From Hufsiella arboris (lineage in GTDB: Bacteria; Bacteroidota; Bacteroidia; Sphingobacteriales; Sphingobacteriaceae): a stretch of 64,000 nt of DNA. The stretch's first letter is position 1. Each line of letters starts with the position of its first letter. Shown here in pieces: positions 44,745 to 55,584 of this stretch. Below the pieces are notes generated by a model that was not told the origin of the DNA, made no database searches, and saw only the letters and a list, made by a program, of their open reading frames with translations. The DNA lies in the NCBI RefSeq assembly GCF_009834875.1, contig NZ_WVHT01000001.1:620001-684000 (forward strand), read 5' to 3'. Both the position numbers and the translations under genes were made by a program.

Positions 44745-47700
44745 TTAAAGCTCTTCCGCTTCCTCACTTCCCGCCTGCTCCAAAATATCCTGCGGCTTCT
44801 GGAAATTACTTCGCACAAACTGGCACCAGGTACAGTCCTCTTTGCCACAGCCAGTGAACTCATGATTTTTGATGCGCGAATAAGTATCGATGATCTGTTC
44901 CGTTACCACCAGGATATCCTCCGGCCGGATTATTACTTTTTCCTTCACATATTCATCCTTGTCCGGCTCAATAAAATCAAATTCTGAGCTCACTACCTGC
45001 CAGTCTTTCCGACGGTCATTGTCGACCAAAATCTTATAAAAAATAGCCTGCCGCCAGTAGTCTCCGCCAAGCGGCGTTTTCTCATCCGGGCGCTTGAACT
45101 TCGGTTTTGCTTTTTCGAAGCTCCCGGTTTTGTAATCGACTACGTTCACCTGGTTACCGTGAAACTCCAGCTTATCGATCATTCCTTTGATCGGAATCCC
45201 CTGTACTTCTACATTCTTGATCGGGTACTCGGTAACGGTTACCTTTTCCCAGGTGTTGATGTATTTGTTGTAGTATTCAGGGAGGATCTTGTTTCCGTAA
45301 TCCATCCGGCGCTTAAATTGCTCGGAAGTAAAAGCCTCGCGGTTACGGTTCATGTACCAGTAGAAATCATTCAGCAACTGCTCGATGCTTCCAAATTCAT
45401 TTCCGTTGTCGGGAAGCGAACGGAACAACTTATTGAGCGCCCAGTGCACCGCCGAACCGAAGGTCATCGTTTCGTTTTTTCCGCATGGCACCTGGATGAG
45501 ATTTTGGAAATAGAATTTCAGCGGGCAATCCAGGTAGTTGTTCAAATGAGTCACGCTGAGCACATATTTCTCCAGCAGCTGATCCACGTAGTCTTTGTCG
45601 ATCAATCCAAGATCAGGCTTATCCTGCTCGGTAAACTGGAGAATAAAGAAATCGGTCAGCACATCATCGGAAACTTCCTGGCGTTGAACAGTTAGATCCG
45701 TTTTTGAAAGTATCTCGCCGATAAAAACAGTTGGTTCCAGGTCCTTTCCCTTATTATCGTATTCCGGATAGGAGATGTATAAATGTTTTTTTGCTCGCGT
45801 AATGGCCACATAAAATAACCGCCTGAGTTCTTCTTCATCACTTGAATTCGGCAAAGATGAAAATATGGTATCAGGGAATTTATAACCCGACGACATTTTG
45901 CGTTTTCCCTCCCAGACTTTTTTGTTGCAGCCAATGAAAAATACGTACTCAAATTCCAAACCCTTTGAACCGTGACAGGTCAGGAAGTTAACGCCCTGCT
46001 GGTTAAAGATGGTTTGATTCAGATCGAGCGATAGATCATTCTCTTTTAAAAGATCAAGCCTCAAAACAAACTCATGCAAATTCAGCGATGGATCTTTCCT
46101 GCTTTCATCCTTCAGGAAATTAAACAGCGAGGCGAGCACCTGCATGTACCAGGTTTTTTCGGATGATCGCAGAATGTAAGCGAGAATTCCGCCGCGCACC
46201 ATGATCTTTTCGAACAGGTTTTGCAGCGTTAGGTTATGGCTTTCTTTGATCCAGTATTCCAGGTCGTCGCTTAAGCGCTTAATCGATTTTCGGCTTTCCG
46301 AATCAAATAAAGTCTGACCGGTTTTGAATGCGATCTCCTGTATTTTGGAACGGATCGAAACCTTGTCGCGGTGCGAACGATTGTACTCACTTACCTCCAC
46401 GCTGATCTTTGCGATATCGATGGGGGCGATCTCGTAAAAATCGTAATGCATGATCTCGAACAACAGCTCGTCGCCACTGAAAGCAAACTCATTTTCTGCC
46501 GCGATATAACGCAGAATATTGATGAGCTTTTGCCCGAACGGTTCGGTCAGGATATTCACCTTTCGTTTCGTGTGAACCGGAATTCCTTTCAGCTGAAAGT
46601 ACTTTCCAAGTTCCTGCCCGGAACGGTGTTCTTTATAAATGACAGCAATTTCTTCCGGCGCAATGCCACCTTGTATCAATCTGCCAACCTCGTGCGTTAC
46701 TGCCGCAAATTCATGAAACTGCGATTGGTACGAACGCAACTGGGGATGATATTTTGCACCCAGGTAACGGTCGTTTTTTGCCAGCAGATGCTTACTCAAT
46801 CCCGGCAGGTTCACTCGTTCCATGTTATGCCCGATCAGCTCCCGCGAAATGTCCAGGATTTCCTGTGCGGAGCGATAATTATCCGTCAGCATGATGCGGT
46901 ACAGATCCGCCGAATATTTTGAGTTGTAAGCTTCGATGTTTTGCACGTTCGCTCCCTGGAAACGGAAGATCGATTGATCGTCATCGCCTACCACAAAGAT
47001 ATTCGGCTTTTCCCAGTAGCTAATCAGTAGGTTAATCAGTTCATTCTGCGAACCGCTGGTATCCTGGTACTCATCTACCAGCACATACTGATATTTTTCT
47101 TGGTAATTGAGCAGCAGATTCTCATCATTTTTAAACGCGTTCAGCACCCACAGGATCATGTCGTCATAATCGTACCGGCCGGCATCCAACATCAGCTTCT
47201 GGTAAGCCGGGAATTCATTTACGGCCGCCCGAAGTTTCTCCAGGTTTTCACAAAATGTGGTGTAAGCCGGCTTAAGCGATCCCGCCGGTTTGTCGAGGTA
47301 TTTCCGGGTGTATTTATAATCTTTATAGTAAGGCGAATCCGGCTCACAAACTTCCACCAAATCCTTAAATTCATCAATTTTAGCACTGATATATTCCGGC
47401 GACCAGTCCTCGCGCTTCATCGTGGAAAACAATTCCTGCAAGCGCCTGATCTCAAAATACACATCTCCCCGAAAACGCTTCAGCGGATGGTTAGGTGAAA
47501 AACTATCCACCAGTGTGCGGAACACATCGATACGTTCCAAATCAGAAATCGGATCAAGATCCAGCTTGCCGAAGTAATCCAGGTTTTCCTGGATGATGTC
47601 GTTACAAAAAGCGTGGAAAGTATAAATGTTCACCCGGTGCGCCTCCGGACCAATAAAATCAAACAACCTTTTCCGCATCGCCACGGCGCCGGCATCCGTG

Positions 47701-47909
47701 TAAGTTAAACACAAAATGTTGTGCGGCTGCGTGTCCGTATCCAGCAATATCTTTCCAATCCGCGCCGCCAGGATTTGCGTTTTACCTGTCCCCGGACCAG
47801 CGATCACCAGCACCGGCCCTTCGATCTGGTTCACCGCTTTAAGCTGGTTTTCATTCAGGCGTTGTAAAGCTTCCTGGAAGTTCTGGTTGTATTTGGAAAG
47901 CAGTTGCAT
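44745..47909 (-). CDS. UvrD/AddA-type helicase with C-terminal Cys-cluster nuclease
   Basis: A 1054-residue ATP-dependent DNA helicase of superfamily 1. Walker A GPGTGKT (38-44), Walker B/Q motif LVDEYQDTSGSQNE, VGDDDQSIFRFQGAN, and LTCHGSKGLEFEYVFFIG. The C-terminal part is a PD-(D/E)XK-type nuclease: YLDCPLKFYF, GMIDKLEF, VVDYKTGS, and a terminal Cys trio (GCGKEDCTWCQF), matching the iron-sulfur nuclease arrangement of AddB/AdnB-like proteins. So it is a helicase-nuclease in one chain, probably for DNA end processing or repair, with possible action on foreign DNA. No AddB-like partner gene is in the window. Confidence 0.93.
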   Translation of the reverse strand: MQLLSKYNQNFQEALQRLNENQLKAVNQIEGPVLVIAGPGTGKTQILAARIGKILLDTDTQPHNILCLTYTDAGAVAMRKRLFDFIGPEAHRVNIYTFHAFCNDIIQENLDYFGKLDLDPISDLERIDVFRTLVDSFSPNHPLKRFRGDVYFEIRRLQELFSTMKREDWSPEYISAKIDEFKDLVEVCEPDSPYYKDYKYTRKYLDKPAGSLKPAYTTFCENLEKLRAAVNEFPAYQKLMLDAGRYDYDDMILWVLNAFKNDENLLLNYQEKYQYVLVDEYQDTSGSQNELINLLISYWEKPNIFVVGDDDQSIFRFQGANVQNIEAYNSKYSADLYRIMLTDNYRSAQEILDISRELIGHNMERVNLPGLSKHLLAKNDRYLGAKYHPQLRSYQSQFHEFAAVTHEVGRLIQGGIAPEEIAVIYKEHRSGQELGKYFQLKGIPVHTKRKVNILTEPFGQKLINILRYIAAENEFAFSGDELLFEIMHYDFYEIAPIDIAKISVEVSEYNRSHRDKVSIRSKIQEIAFKTGQTLFDSESRKSIKRLSDDLEYWIKESHNLTLQNLFEKIMVRGGILAYILRSSEKTWYMQVLASLFNFLKDESRKDPSLNLHEFVLRLDLLKENDLSLDLNQTIFNQQGVNFLTCHGSKGLEFEYVFFIGCNKKVWEGKRKMSSGYKFPDTIFSSLPNSSDEEELRRLFYVAITRAKKHLYISYPEYDNKGKDLEPTVFIGEILSKTDLTVQRQEVSDDVLTDFFILQFTEQDKPDLGLIDKDYVDQLLEKYVLSVTHLNNYLDCPLKFYFQNLIQVPCGKNETMTFGSAVHWALNKLFRSLPDNGNEFGSIEQLLNDFYWYMNRNREAFTSEQFKRRMDYGNKILPEYYNKYINTWEKVTVTEYPIKNVEVQGIPIKGMIDKLEFHGNQVNVVDYKTGSFEKAKPKFKRPDEKTPLGGDYWRQAIFYKILVDNDRRKDWQVVSSEFDFIEPDKDEYVKEKVIIRPEDILVVTEQIIDTYSRIKNHEFTGCGKEDCTWCQFVRSNFQKPQDILEQAGSEEAEEL

Positions 47910-48376: not shown

Positions 48377-51300
48377 CTACTGGCGGGGTTGAGAGTTGGA
48401 ATGATCAGGCAAACCAATAATACAGGAGGCAACCCTACTCCACATATTGACAATTAGTGGAGCTTCGATATAGATTTTTTGAAGCATTTCATTTGTTAGT
48501 TCGATCGATTTCTCTTTTCGCAAATCGAGCAAGGATAAAACTTTTTTATCCTTTTTCTTTTGAGCGCGTTTTTTTTGGGCAAGAATAGGCGTAAAAATAT
48601 CTAACCATTGCTGCGAAAAATGGTAATAGTCGATATTATATTCCTCATCAATGATGCGGGGTTCAAACATATCCAGTACTCGCTTGATCAGTTTTTTGCG
48701 AATGGGATCCTTTTCTGAAAATTTAAGCTGCTTCTCAAGAATCACTTTGGCAACCTCGATTGCCCTTTTACGCTTGCTAGGTAGCATATTTATTTCATTG
48801 TATAACAGAAGTTTTATATAGCGGTCGAGTTCTTGCTGAACTGAGTCTGACCATTTCATTTCCCAGTGTTGGGTACTCGCAATATGATGCCTTAACTGCT
48901 GACAAACCTCGGTAAGTTCCACGGATATTTTTTGATTGGCATCAACAAAATACCACCTAGGCGAAATAGCTCTGGTTCCTTTAACGGCCAGAAATATCCA
49001 AGGATTTGCTGATCGCCCGATACTGAGTTTCACTTTAACGCTGGCATCTACATCTTTCCAGGTTTCGTAAGTTTCTGGATCAATTAGTGTATTTTCACCC
49101 TCATATAGTTCATGAACACTGTTAAAAGCATCTTGTACCCCGGCCCATAAATACTCTTGGTCCTTATTCTCTTTCATGGCTTTTATCATCTCCTCTGGCC
49201 TAATCACATGATCCAAGTGTTGTCCCAAGATTTCATCGGGTATAGTAAAATTAGATCCAATTAAGCTTTCTGTGTCAAAAGAGGTTTTGATAAGCCGTTC
49301 GTCTGAACGTAAGGCAAATTCTTCACTATCCATCGGCCAATATATTTTGATTTTGGTATGCGGGCTATCTAACCGGTCAATGCGGCCGATACGCTGCTCG
49401 GCAATACGTAGTACACTGGGCATATCCAAGAACATTAATGCTGATGCCTGCTGAAGATTTACACCCTCTGACATTGAATCTGAGCATAAAGCCAACACAT
49501 TTTGACTGGTTGAACCGAGATCAAATTTTTTAAGAATGCTGGCAATAGCAGTTTTAGAGGATGCGCCGGTGCCGATGTAATGGTCAATACCCTTATCTGA
49601 ATGATGAGTACTTATCAGTTTACCTAGGAAGTCGAGCGTCAGAACTGTACTGTCGAAAGCCAATACTAAAGCATTCTCTTTAAATAATTTGAGTAGCTCA
49701 CTGATCTTTTTAAGCTCTCTTGACAGGCTTAAATTAATCGACAATAACGCTATTTGTTCGTAAATAGCTATCTCCTCACGGCAGGCTTGTTGATAGGTTG
49801 CTAAGTCGGTTAGCCATTCTGGACAAACCGATTTTAGCTGATTTTTTGGCAGCGCTTCGCTGAGTTTGCGGATGGTGCCGATTATATTACCTGACTTATC
49901 TTTGCCGGATTTAAACTTATATTCTTTCAAGGCTGCGTCTGTGCCTTTCAGATGCTCCAATAGTGCGGCTTTAGAAGAACGCATTTTCGCTTGGATATTG
50001 TACTTGGATAACGCCTTACCCGCCCGTAAACGCAAATCCACGTAGTATGATTCGTCTTTACCCTCCAGGTCGTCTGGCTTTATAATGCTTTGTAAATAAA
50101 CTAGTCCTTTCAACTCGTCGGCGAGCCGATTGATCTCCCGGGCGATGCTCTGGTCGTCCTTTGTTTCTCCCGTCTTATAAATCTTTGGCGAATTTTCAGG
50201 ATAACGGCAGCGTTCGCCCTGTCGGTTTAAATACAATTCTGGCTCGCGGTCAATCAGTTTATTTAATTGTGTTTTTGTTCTACGAACGATAAATTTCTCG
50301 ATATAAGTTTTGAGCGCGGCGAACTCTGGTGAATTGCTTTTGATATGTCTCTGCTTTTTAAGTGCTTTGAAATCTTCCAGCTCCTGATCACCTAAGTTGT
50401 CTACTCCTAATAACTCGATCAGCCGCATTAGGTCTTTCGGTTTTTTATTGATCGGTGTAGCGGTCGCTAAAATAATATTGTCCGAAGTATGCTCCGCCAC
50501 GCTCATACTTCGAAATGAATGCAGGTTTAAAAAATTATGTGCTTCATCAACAACCAAAATATTGGCGTTCCGGATTTCTTTTAGATGTGTCCCGTGGTTA
50601 TGCCCTTTAGTATAGCTCAATGCGCCCATAGATATCTGTCCACTTTGCGAAAATTCGATATCAACAAACTCTTTGTGCCAACTATCTTTAACCAACGGCG
50701 GACAAATCGTGACCGCATAAGATCTGTTTCGTCGACCAGTTTCCCAAAGCCAATGATATAATACTAATTGCAATGTGCTGACCATTTTAGTTTTGCCCGA
50801 TCCTGTCGGATCGGCAATCAACACACAACCTTGGGTTTGGAGGATATACATTGCCTGGCCCAGTCCCAAACGCTGGGAAGGCCATAACTTCAGGCTGTTC
50901 AACTTATTGTAAAGCTCCGGAATATCATTCAGCCAAGGTTTATCCAATAGCTCGGCTATCGCACGAGCCAATGCTTCCTGCCAAGTGACAAGTTTAAGCA
51001 GTGCTTTTAATAACTCAATAATAGTTTCATTATAAGGCTTACCCAAGCAGTAATAATTTTCAGCGATCTGTTTAATCTGAAGGTACTGTCCTTCCTCAAC
51101 CGGGTTTAATGGATCATTCACTATCCTGATATTTGCCTCATGCTGCAATGTTAAGCCGTTCTTACTGAAATTAGCCGATCCAAGAATTACATGCAAGTCA
51201 CCTACATAGATTTTAGCATGAAGACCATCGGATAAACGGAAACTAACACGATCTTCCTTGATCAATTCTATCACCTTGATCACAACACCACCATTCAACA

Positions 51301-51670
51301 GAGAATAGTGTTGAGTCGCCCAATATTCTTTAATATCTTTATCTAATTCCGCACTCTTCCACAACTTACGCTCGCGCAATTCCGGTTCAAAACCTAGTAC
51401 TATCCGTACATTTTTTAAGCGGCCAAAACGGATTTTACCGCCAAACAACTCTATGATGTGTGCTAAAGACGTAAAGCCGGTTACCACCAAATAATTTTCA
51501 CTTGCTGCAATATCTTCGAGCACTACATCCAATACAGTACGTCTACTTACAAGATCTTTAAGATTTAAAGGAAAAGCATGATTGTCTGGCCACACGACCA
51601 GTGGGGGTGGTGGATTTTCAAAATCCATTACCTGCTGAACTATTGGGGTTTTAACTTTAACTCGCGCCAC
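48377..51670 (-). CDS. PLD-nuclease/SNF2-like helicase fusion protein
   Basis: A 1097-residue protein. N-terminal phospholipase-D-type nuclease with one HKD motif: HAKIYVGD (His151, Lys153) then LGSANFSKNGL (Ser165, Asn167). SNF2/DEAH helicase: ADPTGSGKT (Walker A near 286-294), VVDEAH, ATATPINKK, a long insertion (about 440-690), then SDSMSEGVNLQQASALMF and EQRIGRIDRLDSP. The arrangement recalls type IV restriction enzymes such as SauUSI and SNF2-PLD proteins of phage-defence loci; a modified-DNA or phage-DNA target is inferred. Start GTG; an ATG at 51628 is an alternative. It follows the HNH gene by 112 bp on the same strand. Confidence 0.88.
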   Translation of the reverse strand: MARVKVKTPIVQQVMDFENPPPPLVVWPDNHAFPLNLKDLVSRRTVLDVVLEDIAASENYLVVTGFTSLAHIIELFGGKIRFGRLKNVRIVLGFEPELRERKLWKSAELDKDIKEYWATQHYSLLNGGVVIKVIELIKEDRVSFRLSDGLHAKIYVGDLHVILGSANFSKNGLTLQHEANIRIVNDPLNPVEEGQYLQIKQIAENYYCLGKPYNETIIELLKALLKLVTWQEALARAIAELLDKPWLNDIPELYNKLNSLKLWPSQRLGLGQAMYILQTQGCVLIADPTGSGKTKMVSTLQLVLYHWLWETGRRNRSYAVTICPPLVKDSWHKEFVDIEFSQSGQISMGALSYTKGHNHGTHLKEIRNANILVVDEAHNFLNLHSFRSMSVAEHTSDNIILATATPINKKPKDLMRLIELLGVDNLGDQELEDFKALKKQRHIKSNSPEFAALKTYIEKFIVRRTKTQLNKLIDREPELYLNRQGERCRYPENSPKIYKTGETKDDQSIAREINRLADELKGLVYLQSIIKPDDLEGKDESYYVDLRLRAGKALSKYNIQAKMRSSKAALLEHLKGTDAALKEYKFKSGKDKSGNIIGTIRKLSEALPKNQLKSVCPEWLTDLATYQQACREEIAIYEQIALLSINLSLSRELKKISELLKLFKENALVLAFDSTVLTLDFLGKLISTHHSDKGIDHYIGTGASSKTAIASILKKFDLGSTSQNVLALCSDSMSEGVNLQQASALMFLDMPSVLRIAEQRIGRIDRLDSPHTKIKIYWPMDSEEFALRSDERLIKTSFDTESLIGSNFTIPDEILGQHLDHVIRPEEMIKAMKENKDQEYLWAGVQDAFNSVHELYEGENTLIDPETYETWKDVDASVKVKLSIGRSANPWIFLAVKGTRAISPRWYFVDANQKISVELTEVCQQLRHHIASTQHWEMKWSDSVQQELDRYIKLLLYNEINMLPSKRKRAIEVAKVILEKQLKFSEKDPIRKKLIKRVLDMFEPRIIDEEYNIDYYHFSQQWLDIFTPILAQKKRAQKKKDKKVLSLLDLRKEKSIELTNEMLQKIYIEAPLIVNMWSRVASCIIGLPDHSNSQPRQ

Positions 51671-51782
51671 ATTGTCGAATTAGGAAAATTGAATATAGTG
51701 ATTTATAAAGGAATCTAACTCCACAGTCGGCCCGAGCGTCTCGCTCATATACATCCATATTATTTACAATCCAATCTTTCCA

Positions 51783-52745
51783 TCACCCTTTAAACACATT
51801 CTCCCTATGCCACCTTACATTTTCCGCCGCCGGATAACAACGCGCTGAAGACGGTAAATGCATCGGTTTCCCTTCCAACTGTTTCAGGCTATACGCATGG
51901 TCGGCAACCTCAAAAACATGTTGCGAAATAATTATACGGTAATCTGTATCAAGAGTAACCAGTCCACGGTCAAACGCCCGGTGCATATTTGGACAGAGTG
52001 CAATCCCGTTACTCATCTTATCGTCCTGTGAAATGCTGAACGGCACAATGTGGCATGCGTCGATTAACGTATGACCAAATGTGGTTTGCAATTTCATTCC
52101 GGTAAAGCTGCATGTCTGATCATAAACTTTAGGCACTAGTTTTTTAAACATCCGGTTACGTACAAACACATCTTCTTCCGTTTGCGGCTCAACCCGCCTG
52201 TATCGTACTTTAGGTTCATTCAACAGGTACGCTTCCAGTTCATGCAGGTAACCACCTTCCGTTTGCTTGCTGATATCAAACAGGGTTTCGCTTTCCGGGA
52301 AAACGGTATTAAGTAAAAACTTCCTTATCGTATTACGGCTTACCGGATTGAGCATAAGAGAATAAAGATCTTCCGATAAGCTGGCGTGATCCGTTAACAC
52401 AGCGATCTTATTAATACTGCTTGTTTTAGGATCCAGATCATAACCCGGTTTTTGTGTCAAAAACCAGAACGGTTGCCCACCAATCCGATCGTTCTGCATA
52501 TACCAAAAGGGCTGCTTAAAGTCCGGCTGGTGATCGGTGCGAACTAAGAGCTTCCAGTTTTCCAGGAATAAGCCCACCAGGCTTTCGTCGATACAGATCC
52601 TGTTTCCGGATACCAGCCCCTTCTCAAAAAGCTCTGTAATTGTGATCAGCAATACCAGCTTATGCGGCGCTGTCCCATAACGCGTTGGCGCCCTCTTAAC
52701 TTTGGAAAGTCCATGGAGATATTTGTCAAGCAGCGCCGGTTGCAT
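51783..52745 (-). CDS. HNH endonuclease with ScoMcrA-like N-terminal domain
   Basis: A 320-residue protein. HNH domain at about 208-262: YDQTCSFTGMKLQ, DACHIVPFS (Cys231-His232), then NGIALCPNMHRAFDRGL, an HNH_2-type finger. The N-terminus (about 5-150), with TRYGTAPHKLVLLITITELF, then KQPFWYM and QPFWFL, resembles the sulfur-binding domain of ScoMcrA-type restriction enzymes that recognise phosphorothioated DNA (APHK...LL and PFW patterns; from memory). So it is a candidate modification-dependent (type IV) endonuclease. Upstream of the PLD-SNF2 gene on the same strand, possibly one module. ATG start. Confidence 0.82.
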   Translation of the reverse strand: MQPALLDKYLHGLSKVKRAPTRYGTAPHKLVLLITITELFEKGLVSGNRICIDESLVGLFLENWKLLVRTDHQPDFKQPFWYMQNDRIGGQPFWFLTQKPGYDLDPKTSSINKIAVLTDHASLSEDLYSLMLNPVSRNTIRKFLLNTVFPESETLFDISKQTEGGYLHELEAYLLNEPKVRYRRVEPQTEEDVFVRNRMFKKLVPKVYDQTCSFTGMKLQTTFGHTLIDACHIVPFSISQDDKMSNGIALCPNMHRAFDRGLVTLDTDYRIIISQHVFEVADHAYSLKQLEGKPMHLPSSARCYPAAENVRWHRENVFKG

Positions 52746-55086: not shown

Positions 55087-55584
55087 ATGAAAAAGATCCT
55101 GGCTTTTGCCTTCTTATTTTTAAGCGCCTCCGTTTTTGCTCAGCAAAACGAGCCTAAGTTGTACCACCCGGAAGCCGATGCTAAAGCCGACATCAAAAAC
55201 GCTGTCGATAAGGCGTCGAAAGAAGGCAAGCATGTCCTTTTACAGATCGGCGGCAACTGGTGTGTATGGTGTTTGCGCTTCAACAAGCTGGTGACGGAGA
55301 ACGACACTCTTCGAAATGAGATTGCATCCAACTACGAAGTTGTCCATGTTAATTATAGCAAGGAAAACAAGAACGAAGCGGTACTGGCATCGCTGGGCTA
55401 CCCGCAGCGCTTTGGTTTCCCGGTGTTCGTCATCCTCGACGGAAAAGGCAAGGTAATTCATATCCAAAACAGTGGTTACCTGGAAGAAGGAAAAGGCCAC
55501 AGCTCAGCGAAAGTCCTTGAATTTTTAGAAAGCTGGACGCCAAAGGCGGTGGATCCGAAAACGTATCAGACGACTAGCAAGTAG
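55087..55584 (+). CDS. Secreted thioredoxin-like protein
   Basis: A 165-residue protein with signal peptide (cleavage near residue 18, after VFA). Thioredoxin fold with GGNWCVWCLRF (Cys59, Cys62; a WCxWC variant of the CxxC site), then RFGFPVFVILDGKGKVIHIQ with the conserved cis-Pro (FPVFV). It probably handles disulfide or redox chemistry in the periplasm. Transcribed alone; the following 126 bp before the carboxylesterase has no gene. Confidence 0.9.
   Translation: MKKILAFAFLFLSASVFAQQNEPKLYHPEADAKADIKNAVDKASKEGKHVLLQIGGNWCVWCLRFNKLVTENDTLRNEIASNYEVVHVNYSKENKNEAVLASLGYPQRFGFPVFVILDGKGKVIHIQNSGYLEEGKGHSSAKVLEFLESWTPKAVDPKTYQTTSK

What the first reader, a model, noticed from the sequence alone, without database searches (positions are those of the whole stretch)
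48377..52745. Candidate restriction module: PLD-SNF2 fusion plus ScoMcrA-like HNH enzyme
Seen: a single-HKD PLD nuclease fused to a DEAH/SNF2 helicase, directly downstream of an HNH endonuclease with an APHK...PFW N-terminal domain. Known: SauUSI (PLD plus helicase) and ScoMcrA (sulfur-binding domain plus HNH) are type IV restriction enzymes. Inference: a two-gene modification-sensing defence system, an arrangement I do not recognise as described.
Basis: partly seen in the sequence, partly recalled or inferred. Interest (0 to 1): 0.75.

Follow-up and report, generated by a model that had tools for sequence, protein, structure and literature searches.

The report
Two adjacent DNA-cutting defence genes
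Two genes that probably cut invading DNA sit side by side in a bacterial chromosome; each is a recognisable kind of defence nuclease, their pairing is not a conserved two-gene system, but the larger one belongs to an unnamed mobile family that turns up beside quite different defence partners elsewhere.

Summary
The two genes are real and intact: an HNH endonuclease (51783-52745, minus) and, 112 nt downstream, a 1097-aa PLD-SNF2 fusion (48377-51670, minus). The HNH N-terminus is homologous to sulfur-binding domains (SBDHga1, E = 2.8e-16 with a family profile) and keeps published pocket residues; it is the SRA-less SprMcrA/EcoWI type but scores below NCBI's cut-off for phosphorothioate-dependent enzymes. 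The PLD-SNF2 protein is not SauUSI: it lacks DUF3427 and falls far below curated helicase families. It is rare and horizontally mobile (full-length in 6, broken in 1, of 301 family genomes; 83% identical in a Flavobacterium). The two-gene system is not supported: SBD-HNH lies within 3 kb in 2 of 10 PLD-SNF2 loci (one PLD-SNF2 broken), was not found in the 3 closest relatives' genomes, and co-occurrence is at background. Best reading: two independent restriction nucleases, PLD-SNF2 perhaps a plug-in effector.

The parts
51783..52745 (-). SBD-HNH endonuclease, 320 aa: N-terminal sulfur-binding-domain homologue (about residues 5-151) and C-terminal HNH_2 nuclease (212-266)
52293..52733 (-). region of the HNH gene coding the SBD-homologous part (residues 5-151), with H28 K29, P79 F80, W94
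   Evidence: residue functions from PMC6224610
51948..52112 (-). region coding the HNH_2 nuclease domain (residues 212-266), with H232, N246, N253, H255
48377..51670 (-). PLD-SNF2 fusion, 1097 aa: single HKD PLD nuclease domain, SWI2/SNF2 helicase, about 270-residue C-terminal part without a Pfam match
51110..51337 (-). region matched by PLDc_2 (residues 112-187), HKD motif at residues 151-169
49373..50812 (-). region coding the SNF2 helicase core (Walker A 287-294 to the QRxGRxxR motif 759-766)
51671..51782 (-). 112-nt intergenic gap; about 45 nt next to the PLD-SNF2 start are alignable in the three closest PLD-SNF2 relatives, so that gene may carry its own leader

Best explanation
Two separately inherited DNA-targeting defence nucleases lie next to each other. 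(1) The HNH protein is an SBD-HNH type IV-like restriction enzyme of the SRA-less SprMcrA/EcoWI kind: its SBD pocket reads a modified (most likely phosphorothioated) backbone in incoming DNA and the HNH domain, probably as a dimer, cuts nearby. SBD homology and residues are shown; ligand and cleavage are inferred. (2) The PLD-SNF2 protein is an ATP-driven DNA translocase with a single-HKD nuclease that probably dimerises to form one active site and breaks DNA through a phosphohistidine step. Domains and motifs are shown; translocation and cleavage are inferred. Its trigger is unknown: either its own C-terminal 270 residues or a partner protein that differs from locus to locus. The two genes do not form an obligate system; they may act in parallel on the same invaders.
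For: Domains and motifs. SBD homology, E = 1.2e-7 with one sequence and 2.8e-16 with the A4 profile. NF045808 PT-DNA_restrict matches the window protein over residues 22-319 and all 16 A4 members at E <= 1e-10 (window score below its cut-off). No DndC in the host genome at E <= 1e-20. PLD-SNF2 is patchy and mobile: 6 full-length and 1 broken in 301 family genomes, 83% identity in Flavobacterium and 82% in two Mucilaginibacter, with similarity ending at the stop codon. In 8 of 10 loci no SBD-HNH is within 3 kb, and other restriction or defence genes lie near it in several. SBD-HNH matches occur in 60 of 301 family genomes, 58 of them without PLD-SNF2.
Against: The pair sits alone among housekeeping-type genes, co-directional, with no terminator-like site found between the genes, which would fit co-transcription. 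G104 has the same two families within 1.2 kb. SBD-HNH recurrently neighbours another PLD-helicase type, so a functional link between the two activities is conceivable. The window HNH has L30 where the other 15 of 16 aligned rows have P, and scores half of the NF045808 cut-off. Two DndC-positive genomes carry an intact SBD-HNH (G013, G096), which does not fit simple phosphorothioate targeting unless the sequence specificities differ. No usable structure model was obtained.
Confidence: 0.62

Rival explanations
1. A genuine two-gene modification-sensing system: the SBD-HNH finds and cuts modified DNA and PLD-SNF2 loads at the break and degrades it.
For: Adjacent, co-directional, 112 nt apart, no terminator-like site found between them; no recognisable defence gene among the ten further ORFs scanned around; the same two families within 1.2 kb in G104; 11 of 60 SBD-HNH loci have a PLD-helicase of one of two types within 8 kb.
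Against: The only other co-localised case is on the opposite strand with a broken PLD-SNF2. In the 3 closest PLD-SNF2 relatives no SBD-HNH was found in the genome. No genome-level co-occurrence (2 of 7 against 58 of 294, p = 0.63). PLD-SNF2 may carry its own leader.
Confidence: 0.15
2. PLD-SNF2 is a plug-in effector without its own sensor: it is recruited by whichever recognition module lies upstream (SBD-HNH here, Argonaute in G546, ABC-3C proteins in G241, an unknown trio in two Mucilaginibacter).
For: In G546 it is the last of four tightly packed genes after PD-(D/E)XK, Argonaute and an Aga_Unknown protein (ORFs overlap by 4 nt); in G241 its ORF starts 24 nt after an ABC-3C / Lamassu-like trio; in two Mucilaginibacter it follows three co-directional genes of unknown family by 83 nt.
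Against: Four loci (F. subsaxonicum, G153, G293, G272) show no close co-directional partner of known type, so it can stand alone; each partner context is seen once or, in near relatives, twice.
Confidence: 0.2
3. The SBD-HNH is an ordinary type II restriction enzyme of a 5mC methyltransferase/Vsr system, its SBD-like domain reading unmodified sequence; in the window it is an orphan remnant of such a system.
For: Vsr lies within 8 kb in 8 of 60 and a C5-methyltransferase-like gene in 9 of 60 SBD-HNH loci, Vsr within 35 bp in 4 of the 8 (examples confirmed by Pfam Vsr and DNA_methylase).
Against: 48 of 60 loci show neither within 8 kb, although 16 of the 60 stretches have less than 7 kb on one side; the window has no methyltransferase among the 15 ORFs scanned; the sulfur-pocket residues are invariant.
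Confidence: 0.12

Closest known systems
SprMcrA / EcoWI-type SBD-HNH phosphorothioate-dependent endonucleases (PMC7461809, PMC7470945)
   Same: SBD N-terminus, HNH C-terminus, no SRA, about 300 aa, mostly without a dnd cluster nearby
   Different: About half of the NCBIfam NF045808 cut-off (87.5 of 180 bits); Y164 of ScoMcrA corresponds to Q78 here and A168 to Y82; no activity data
ScoMcrA (PMC6224610)
   Same: SBD pocket residues H116, R117(K), P165 and core residue F166 conserved; HNH nuclease
   Different: No SRA domain between SBD and HNH in the window protein
SauUSI (PLD-motor-DUF3427 type IV enzyme; PMC3874153)
   Same: N-terminal PLD nuclease domain followed by an SF2 motor
   Different: SNF2-type motor; no DUF3427; different C-terminus; no significant similarity to a SauUSI-type protein outside short motifs
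HKD + Swi2/Snf2 helicase effector of 'Type-2 BREX-related' systems (PMC12839542, passages)
   Same: HKD nuclease at the N-terminus of a Swi2/Snf2 helicase, the same architecture
   Different: Those come with DUF499 ATPase, N6-methyltransferase and DUF3780; no such domain was found in the window neighbours scanned
PbeA (HKD + SF2 helicase) and SBD/wHTH-SRA-HNH endonucleases of Dnd neighbourhoods (PMC10853773, passages)
   Same: Both protein classes are already described as restriction components near Dnd genes
   Different: No DndC in the genome; the PLD-helicase is SNF2-type and no PbeA model is among its PADLOC hits
DISARM DrmD/DrmC and Dpd DpdE/DpdK
   Same: Best partial NCBIfam hits of the PLD-SNF2 protein are DpdE (80.8 bits) and DrmD (51.4 bits)
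   Different: Far below cut-offs of 500 and 610 bits

Membership tests
SBD-HNH phosphorothioate-dependent endonuclease | N-terminus homologous to a sulfur-binding domain | tested here: met
   8h0l SBDHga1, E = 1.2e-7 and 2.8e-16 with profile A4 over residues 5-151; sequence homology only, no usable fold model
SBD-HNH phosphorothioate-dependent endonuclease | Sulfur-pocket residues H116, R117/K, P165 of ScoMcrA | tested here: met
   H28, K29, P79 invariant in 16 of 16 rows; equivalences by motif and by the 8h0l alignment, functions from PMC6224610
SBD-HNH phosphorothioate-dependent endonuclease | Score over the NCBIfam NF045808 cut-off (180 bits) | tested here: not met
   87.5 bits in the window protein; all 16 A4 members match the model, but their scores were not printed one by one
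SBD-HNH phosphorothioate-dependent endonuclease | Intact HNH nuclease | tested here: met
   HNH_2 1-66 of 66, 44 bits; H232, N246, N253, H255 invariant in 16 of 16
SBD-HNH phosphorothioate-dependent endonuclease | Host free of the phosphorothioation machinery it would cut | tested here: inconclusive
   No DndC in G000 at E <= 1e-20; 30 of 301 family genomes over the cut-off; of 37 genomes with intact HNH 2 have DndC, p = 0.56; Ssp genes not searched
SBD-HNH phosphorothioate-dependent endonuclease | Cuts phosphorothioated but not plain DNA | not testable with these tools
   needs purified protein
ScoMcrA proper (SBD-SRA-HNH) | SRA domain between SBD and HNH | tested here: not met
   Pfam finds only HNH domains in the 320-aa protein at E <= 0.1
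SauUSI type IV enzymes | PLD nuclease + SF2 motor in one chain | tested here: met
SauUSI type IV enzymes | C-terminal DUF3427 | tested here: not met
   no hit at E <= 0.1, while the two SauUSI-type proteins of the same bacterial family that I scanned give DUF3427 at 1e-28 and 9e-30
SauUSI type IV enzymes | Match to PADLOC mREase_IV models | tested here: not met
   none among the 20 families listed; the SauUSI-type L126 protein scores 770.9 bits
Two-gene SBD-HNH/PLD-SNF2 system | Conserved co-location in independent genomes | tested here: not met
   2 of 10 PLD-SNF2 loci within 3 kb, one with PLD-SNF2 broken and on the opposite strand
Two-gene SBD-HNH/PLD-SNF2 system | Genome-level co-occurrence above background | tested here: not met
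   2 of 7 against 58 of 294 genomes, p = 0.63
Type-2 BREX-related system | DUF499 ATPase, N6-methyltransferase and DUF3780 beside the HKD-Swi2/Snf2 helicase | tested here: not met
   none among the 15 window ORFs scanned with Pfam between 40388 and 62041; other and smaller ORFs not scanned
DISARM / Dpd | Scores over curated DrmD, DrmC, DpdE, DpdK cut-offs | tested here: not met

The most novel reading that the evidence does not exclude
The PLD-SNF2 family is an undescribed mobile helicase-nuclease effector that is plugged in behind unrelated invader sensors: a prokaryotic Argonaute pair, an ABC-3C (Lamassu-like) trio, an unknown trio and, in the window, a phosphorothioate-sensing SBD-HNH. It would be a common executioner shared by guide-directed, structure-directed and modification-directed immunity.
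Probability: 0.2. Interest if true: 0.68.

Novelty: new variant of a known kind. Interest (0 to 1): 0.42.

Why it matters
Each part is of a known kind, so as 'a restriction module' the finding is moderate. It leads to two testable points: an unnamed PLD-SNF2 family that no model of the libraries searched claims above its cut-off as a whole (only Pfam domains; far below the NCBIfam cut-offs for DrmD, DpdE and the PLD antiphage protein) and that follows Argonaute, ABC-3C and SBD-HNH genes; and a recurrent SauUSI-type PLD-helicase / SBD-HNH neighbourhood in Bacteroidota, often with a Nudix gene, that would combine two modification-dependent restriction enzymes. If the effector is really shared, it would show how immune systems swap executioners.

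Tried and rejected
Structure prediction gave nothing usable: HNH alone, mean pLDDT 31.7, and PLD-SNF2 with 4 sequences, 36.5; no fold search was made on such models. Viral contigs gave no PLD-SNF2 relative and one partial HNH hit. Phage records had no PLD-SNF2 match and 3 partial, C-terminal matches for the HNH. Plasmid records: 6 with a remote PLD-SNF2 match, none covering 80% of the query; 72 with an HNH match, 18 of them over 80%.

Considered and rejected: the neighbouring UvrD-PD-(D/E)XK gene (44745-47909) as a third component. It scores on GajB models, as a UvrD-type helicase would, is found at E <= 1e-100 in 12 of 31 genomes, the window's own counted, with up to 78% identity in the others, and in the six other stretches looked at stands without HNH or PLD-SNF2.

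A test of phosphorothioate targeting by exclusion from DndC-positive genomes was inconclusive: 2 of 37 genomes with intact HNH have DndC (p = 0.56). Broken or partial copies: 3 of 5 in DndC-positive against 16 of 51 in the others (p = 0.32); one search had counted 20 of 55 (p = 0.36) by taking four genomes with only remote matches as broken. Truncated SBD-HNH genes lie beside dnd clusters in two genomes (L125, L126), suggestive only.

The Fisher tests compare SBD-HNH near DUF3427 helicases (9 of 20 genomes within 6 kb) with SBD-HNH near dndC (2 of 30), p = 0.004, and PLD-SNF2 (2 of 9, the two Mucilaginibacter counted once) with dndC (1 of 30 within 3 kb), p = 0.13, so the window's pair is not shown to exceed what defence genes show among themselves. 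None is corrected for kinship: 3 of the 9 are one genus and 2 another. The 20 leaves out 4 of 24 matching genomes, those with only 32-42% identity. In several of the 9 one gene is damaged: HNH truncated or broken in G056 and G054, helicase split in G047, partial beside the HNH in G030, with an internal stop in G053 and G054. The SauUSI-type helicase also lies about 1.5 kb from dndC in G171 and G225, so its company is not only SBD-HNH.


Full report
WHAT IS THERE. The two ORFs exist as described, both on the minus strand: HNH 51783-52745 (320 aa) and PLD-SNF2 48377-51670 (1097 aa, GTG start), separated by 112 nt. Pfam finds HNH_2 in the first and PLDc_2, SNF2-rel_dom and Helicase_C in the second. 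Catalytic motifs are intact and, where tested, invariant among relatives: the HxK...GSxN of the PLD domain, Walker A, DEAH and the QRxGRxxR motif in 8 of 8 rows (the D of HKD varies, D/E/N), and H232/N246/N253/H255 of the HNH domain in 16 of 16 rows. These are real, intact genes and not chance frames. Ten further ORFs between 40388 and 62041 are housekeeping-type by Pfam (rhodanese, DUF4407, peptidase, acetyltransferase, glyoxalase, AHSA1, thioredoxin-like, carboxylesterase, GH43, molybdopterin enzyme), so no defence island is visible around the pair. The large UvrD-PD-(D/E)XK gene next to it (44745-47909) is found in 12 of 31 genomes at E <= 1e-100, with up to 78% identity, and in six other stretches stands without the pair; in one of them (G004) it is followed directly by a homologue of the window's gene at 55087-55584, so the interval that holds the pair is empty there.

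THE HNH PROTEIN. Its N-terminus is homologous to a solved sulfur-binding domain, SBDHga1 (8h0l): E = 1.2e-7 with one sequence and 2.8e-16 over residues 5-151 with a 16-row profile. A structure model failed (mean pLDDT 31.7), so this is sequence homology. ScoMcrA reads the phosphorothioate sulfur with H116, R117 (lysine in most homologues), Y164, P165 and A168 (PMC6224610, passages). The equivalents here are H28, K29, Q78, P79 and Y82; H28, K29, P79, F80 and W94 are invariant in 16 of 16 rows. That paper reports Y164 and A168 as less conserved. The window protein has L30 where the other 15 rows have P. There is no SRA domain, so the architecture is that of SprMcrA/EcoWI and not of ScoMcrA itself (PMC7461809: abstract and sections 23, 24 and 27 read; PMC7470945: passages). 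NCBI's model for phosphorothioate-dependent enzymes (NF045808) is the best NCBIfam hit, spanning residues 22-319, but at 87.5 bits against a cut-off of 180; 16 of 16 rows hit it. So: SBD homology shown, phosphorothioate dependence likely but unproven.

WHERE THE HNH FAMILY OCCURS. A match is found in 60 of 301 genomes of the bacterial family: by my count 37 with an apparently intact copy, 19 with only broken or partial ones (some perhaps cut by contig ends) and 4 with only a remote match; and in 29 of 395 genomes drawn from the class at E <= 1e-30. I took 64 stretches, 60 of which hold an intact copy (two from G104; some hits near contig ends were not taken; 16 of the 60 have less than 7 kb on one side), and compared neighbours within 8 kb with eight query proteins only: Nudix 11, SauUSI-type PLD-helicase 9 (6 of them with Nudix), Vsr 8, C5-methyltransferase-like 9 (4 + 5 for two queries), a MazG-like/GIY-YIG pair 4, PLD-SNF2 2. 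These labels rest on blastp; examples were checked with profiles: PLDc_2, ResIII and DUF3427 in L126 and L072, mREase_IV in L126, Nudix = PADLOC candidate PDC-S07 in L126, Vsr and DNA_methylase; the L144 helicase is only 33% identical to the query, and the MazG-like and GIY-YIG names are from reading only. Three of the 9 helicases are split, partial or carry an internal stop (L053, L058, L168). Seen from the other side, 20 of 251 family genomes have a SauUSI-type helicase of at least 50% identity (24 at E <= 1e-60), and in 9 of those 20 an SBD-HNH gene or remnant lies within 6 kb, against 2 of 30 dndC loci (p = 0.004, not corrected for kinship). Gene order and orientation vary, so this is an association and not a fixed operon. 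In three genomes of one genus (L156, L159, L160) the helicase ends about 27 nt before the HNH gene.

DNDC TEST. A phosphorothioate-cutting enzyme should avoid hosts that make phosphorothioates. The window's genome has no DndC at E <= 1e-20; 30 of 301 family genomes have one over the cut-off. Of 37 genomes with an apparently intact HNH, 2 also have DndC (p = 0.56, inconclusive). Truncated HNH genes lie beside dnd genes in two genomes: G014, where only residues 3-66 remain, about 130 bp before the dndC ORF, which is followed by dndD- and dndE-like genes; and G056, where a 127-aa remnant lies about 1.8 kb from a cysteine desulfurase named from reading, with DndC about 5.5 kb away. This fits a conflict between the two but proves nothing. 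PMC7461809 reports dnd clusters near fewer than 3.6% of such enzymes.

THE PLD-SNF2 PROTEIN. It is no SauUSI: no DUF3427, no mREase_IV hit, and only short motif-level similarity to a SauUSI-type protein. Best NCBIfam hits are DpdE (80.8 bits, cut-off 500), DrmD (51.4, cut-off 610) and an antiphage PLD family (38.3, cut-off 1100), all partial. HKD-Swi2/Snf2 fusions are known as effectors of 'Type-2 BREX-related' systems (PMC12839542, passages) and HKD-SF2 helicases as PbeA near Dnd genes (PMC10853773, passages), so the architecture is not new; the family as a whole fits none of the models searched. It is rare: in the family search 9 of 301 genomes matched, of which 6 are full-length members, 1 is broken (G104) and 2 are remote; in the class search only the window and G546 of 395 are full-length members, the other 50 matching genomes giving remote helicases. 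Such identity across orders, with DNA similarity fading at the stop codon and about 45 nt before the start, indicates horizontal transfer as a one-gene unit.

IS IT A TWO-GENE SYSTEM? Of 10 PLD-SNF2 loci (window, L042-L049, L119), SBD-HNH is within 3 kb in two: the window, and G104 (L049), where an intact HNH is 1.2 kb away on the opposite strand and PLD-SNF2 is broken (residues about 229-736 missing). Genome-wide, a match was found in 3 of the 10 genomes (G000, G104, G546). In 301 genomes it is 2 of 7 with PLD-SNF2 against 58 of 294 without (p = 0.63). Hence no sign of an obligate pair. Other partners: in G546 PLD-SNF2 is the last of four tightly packed genes after a PD-(D/E)XK protein (PDC-S26), an Argonaute of 765 aa related to EcAgo (23wq) and 6d8a, and an Aga_Unknown protein, the last two ORFs overlapping by 4 nt when each is drawn from its first start codon (46% identity to the window protein). 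In G241 its ORF starts 24 nt after an ABC-3C / Lamassu-like trio. In two Mucilaginibacter it follows, by 83 nt, three co-directional genes without a Pfam match above cut-off. McrBC genes lie near it in G153 and G272, a Vsr/C5-methyltransferase pair also in G272, and in G153 a gene with an HNH domain of another Pfam family (PF01844) lies 0.6 kb away in the opposite direction; that genome has no match to the SBD-HNH. In F. subsaxonicum, G153, G293 and G272 no close co-directional partner of known type is evident.

MECHANISM. Shown: domain content, intact motifs, SBD homology, mobility, neighbourhoods. From family knowledge: SBD-HNH enzymes of this type bind and cut phosphorothioated DNA (PMC7461809); single-HKD nucleases dimerise and act through a phosphohistidine, and SNF2 motors translocate on duplex DNA (both recalled, not tested here). 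Inferred: the HNH cuts modified incoming DNA; PLD-SNF2 moves along and cuts DNA on an unknown trigger. Whether they cooperate is open; the comparative evidence leans against an obligate link.

PRINT. Searches for the pairing or for Nudix/DUF3427/SBD-HNH/Argonaute combinations listed no paper whose title or shown abstract describes it; I read passages or sections of seven papers only, and the library holds open-licence papers only, so absence from print is not established.

Noticed in passing
   Followed up: partly
L156, L159, L160, L138, L168, L144, L072, L053, L058 and L126: SBD-HNH genes near a SauUSI-type PLD-helicase: 9 of 60 intact SBD-HNH loci, 6 of these 9 with a Nudix gene (PDC-S07 type), plus the truncated copy in L126, in varying order and orientation.
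   Followed up: partly
G171:C6:2087-8050 and G225:C51:10719-16682: SauUSI-type PLD-helicase about 1.5 kb from dndC in two genomes.
   Followed up: no
   Followed up: partly
L125:8661-10298 and L126:14834-15217: Truncated SBD-HNH genes beside dnd phosphorothioation genes in two genomes, as if the dnd cluster and the enzyme that would cut its product cannot stay together.
   Followed up: partly
   Followed up: no
L063, L066, L068, L070, L162: SBD-HNH beside a Vsr mismatch endonuclease gene on the opposite strand (6-526 bp), with a C5-methyltransferase-like gene within 5 kb in four of the five.
   Followed up: partly
family-wide table: Many SBD-HNH copies are broken or partial: by my count 19 of the 60 genomes with a match have only such copies, some perhaps cut by contig ends; this points to fast turnover.
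   Followed up: no
window:44745-47909 (-): 1054-aa UvrD helicase with a PD-(D/E)XK nuclease domain, found at E <= 1e-100 in 12 of 31 genomes but not in the only other genus member held; a patchily kept AddAB-like gene.
   Followed up: partly
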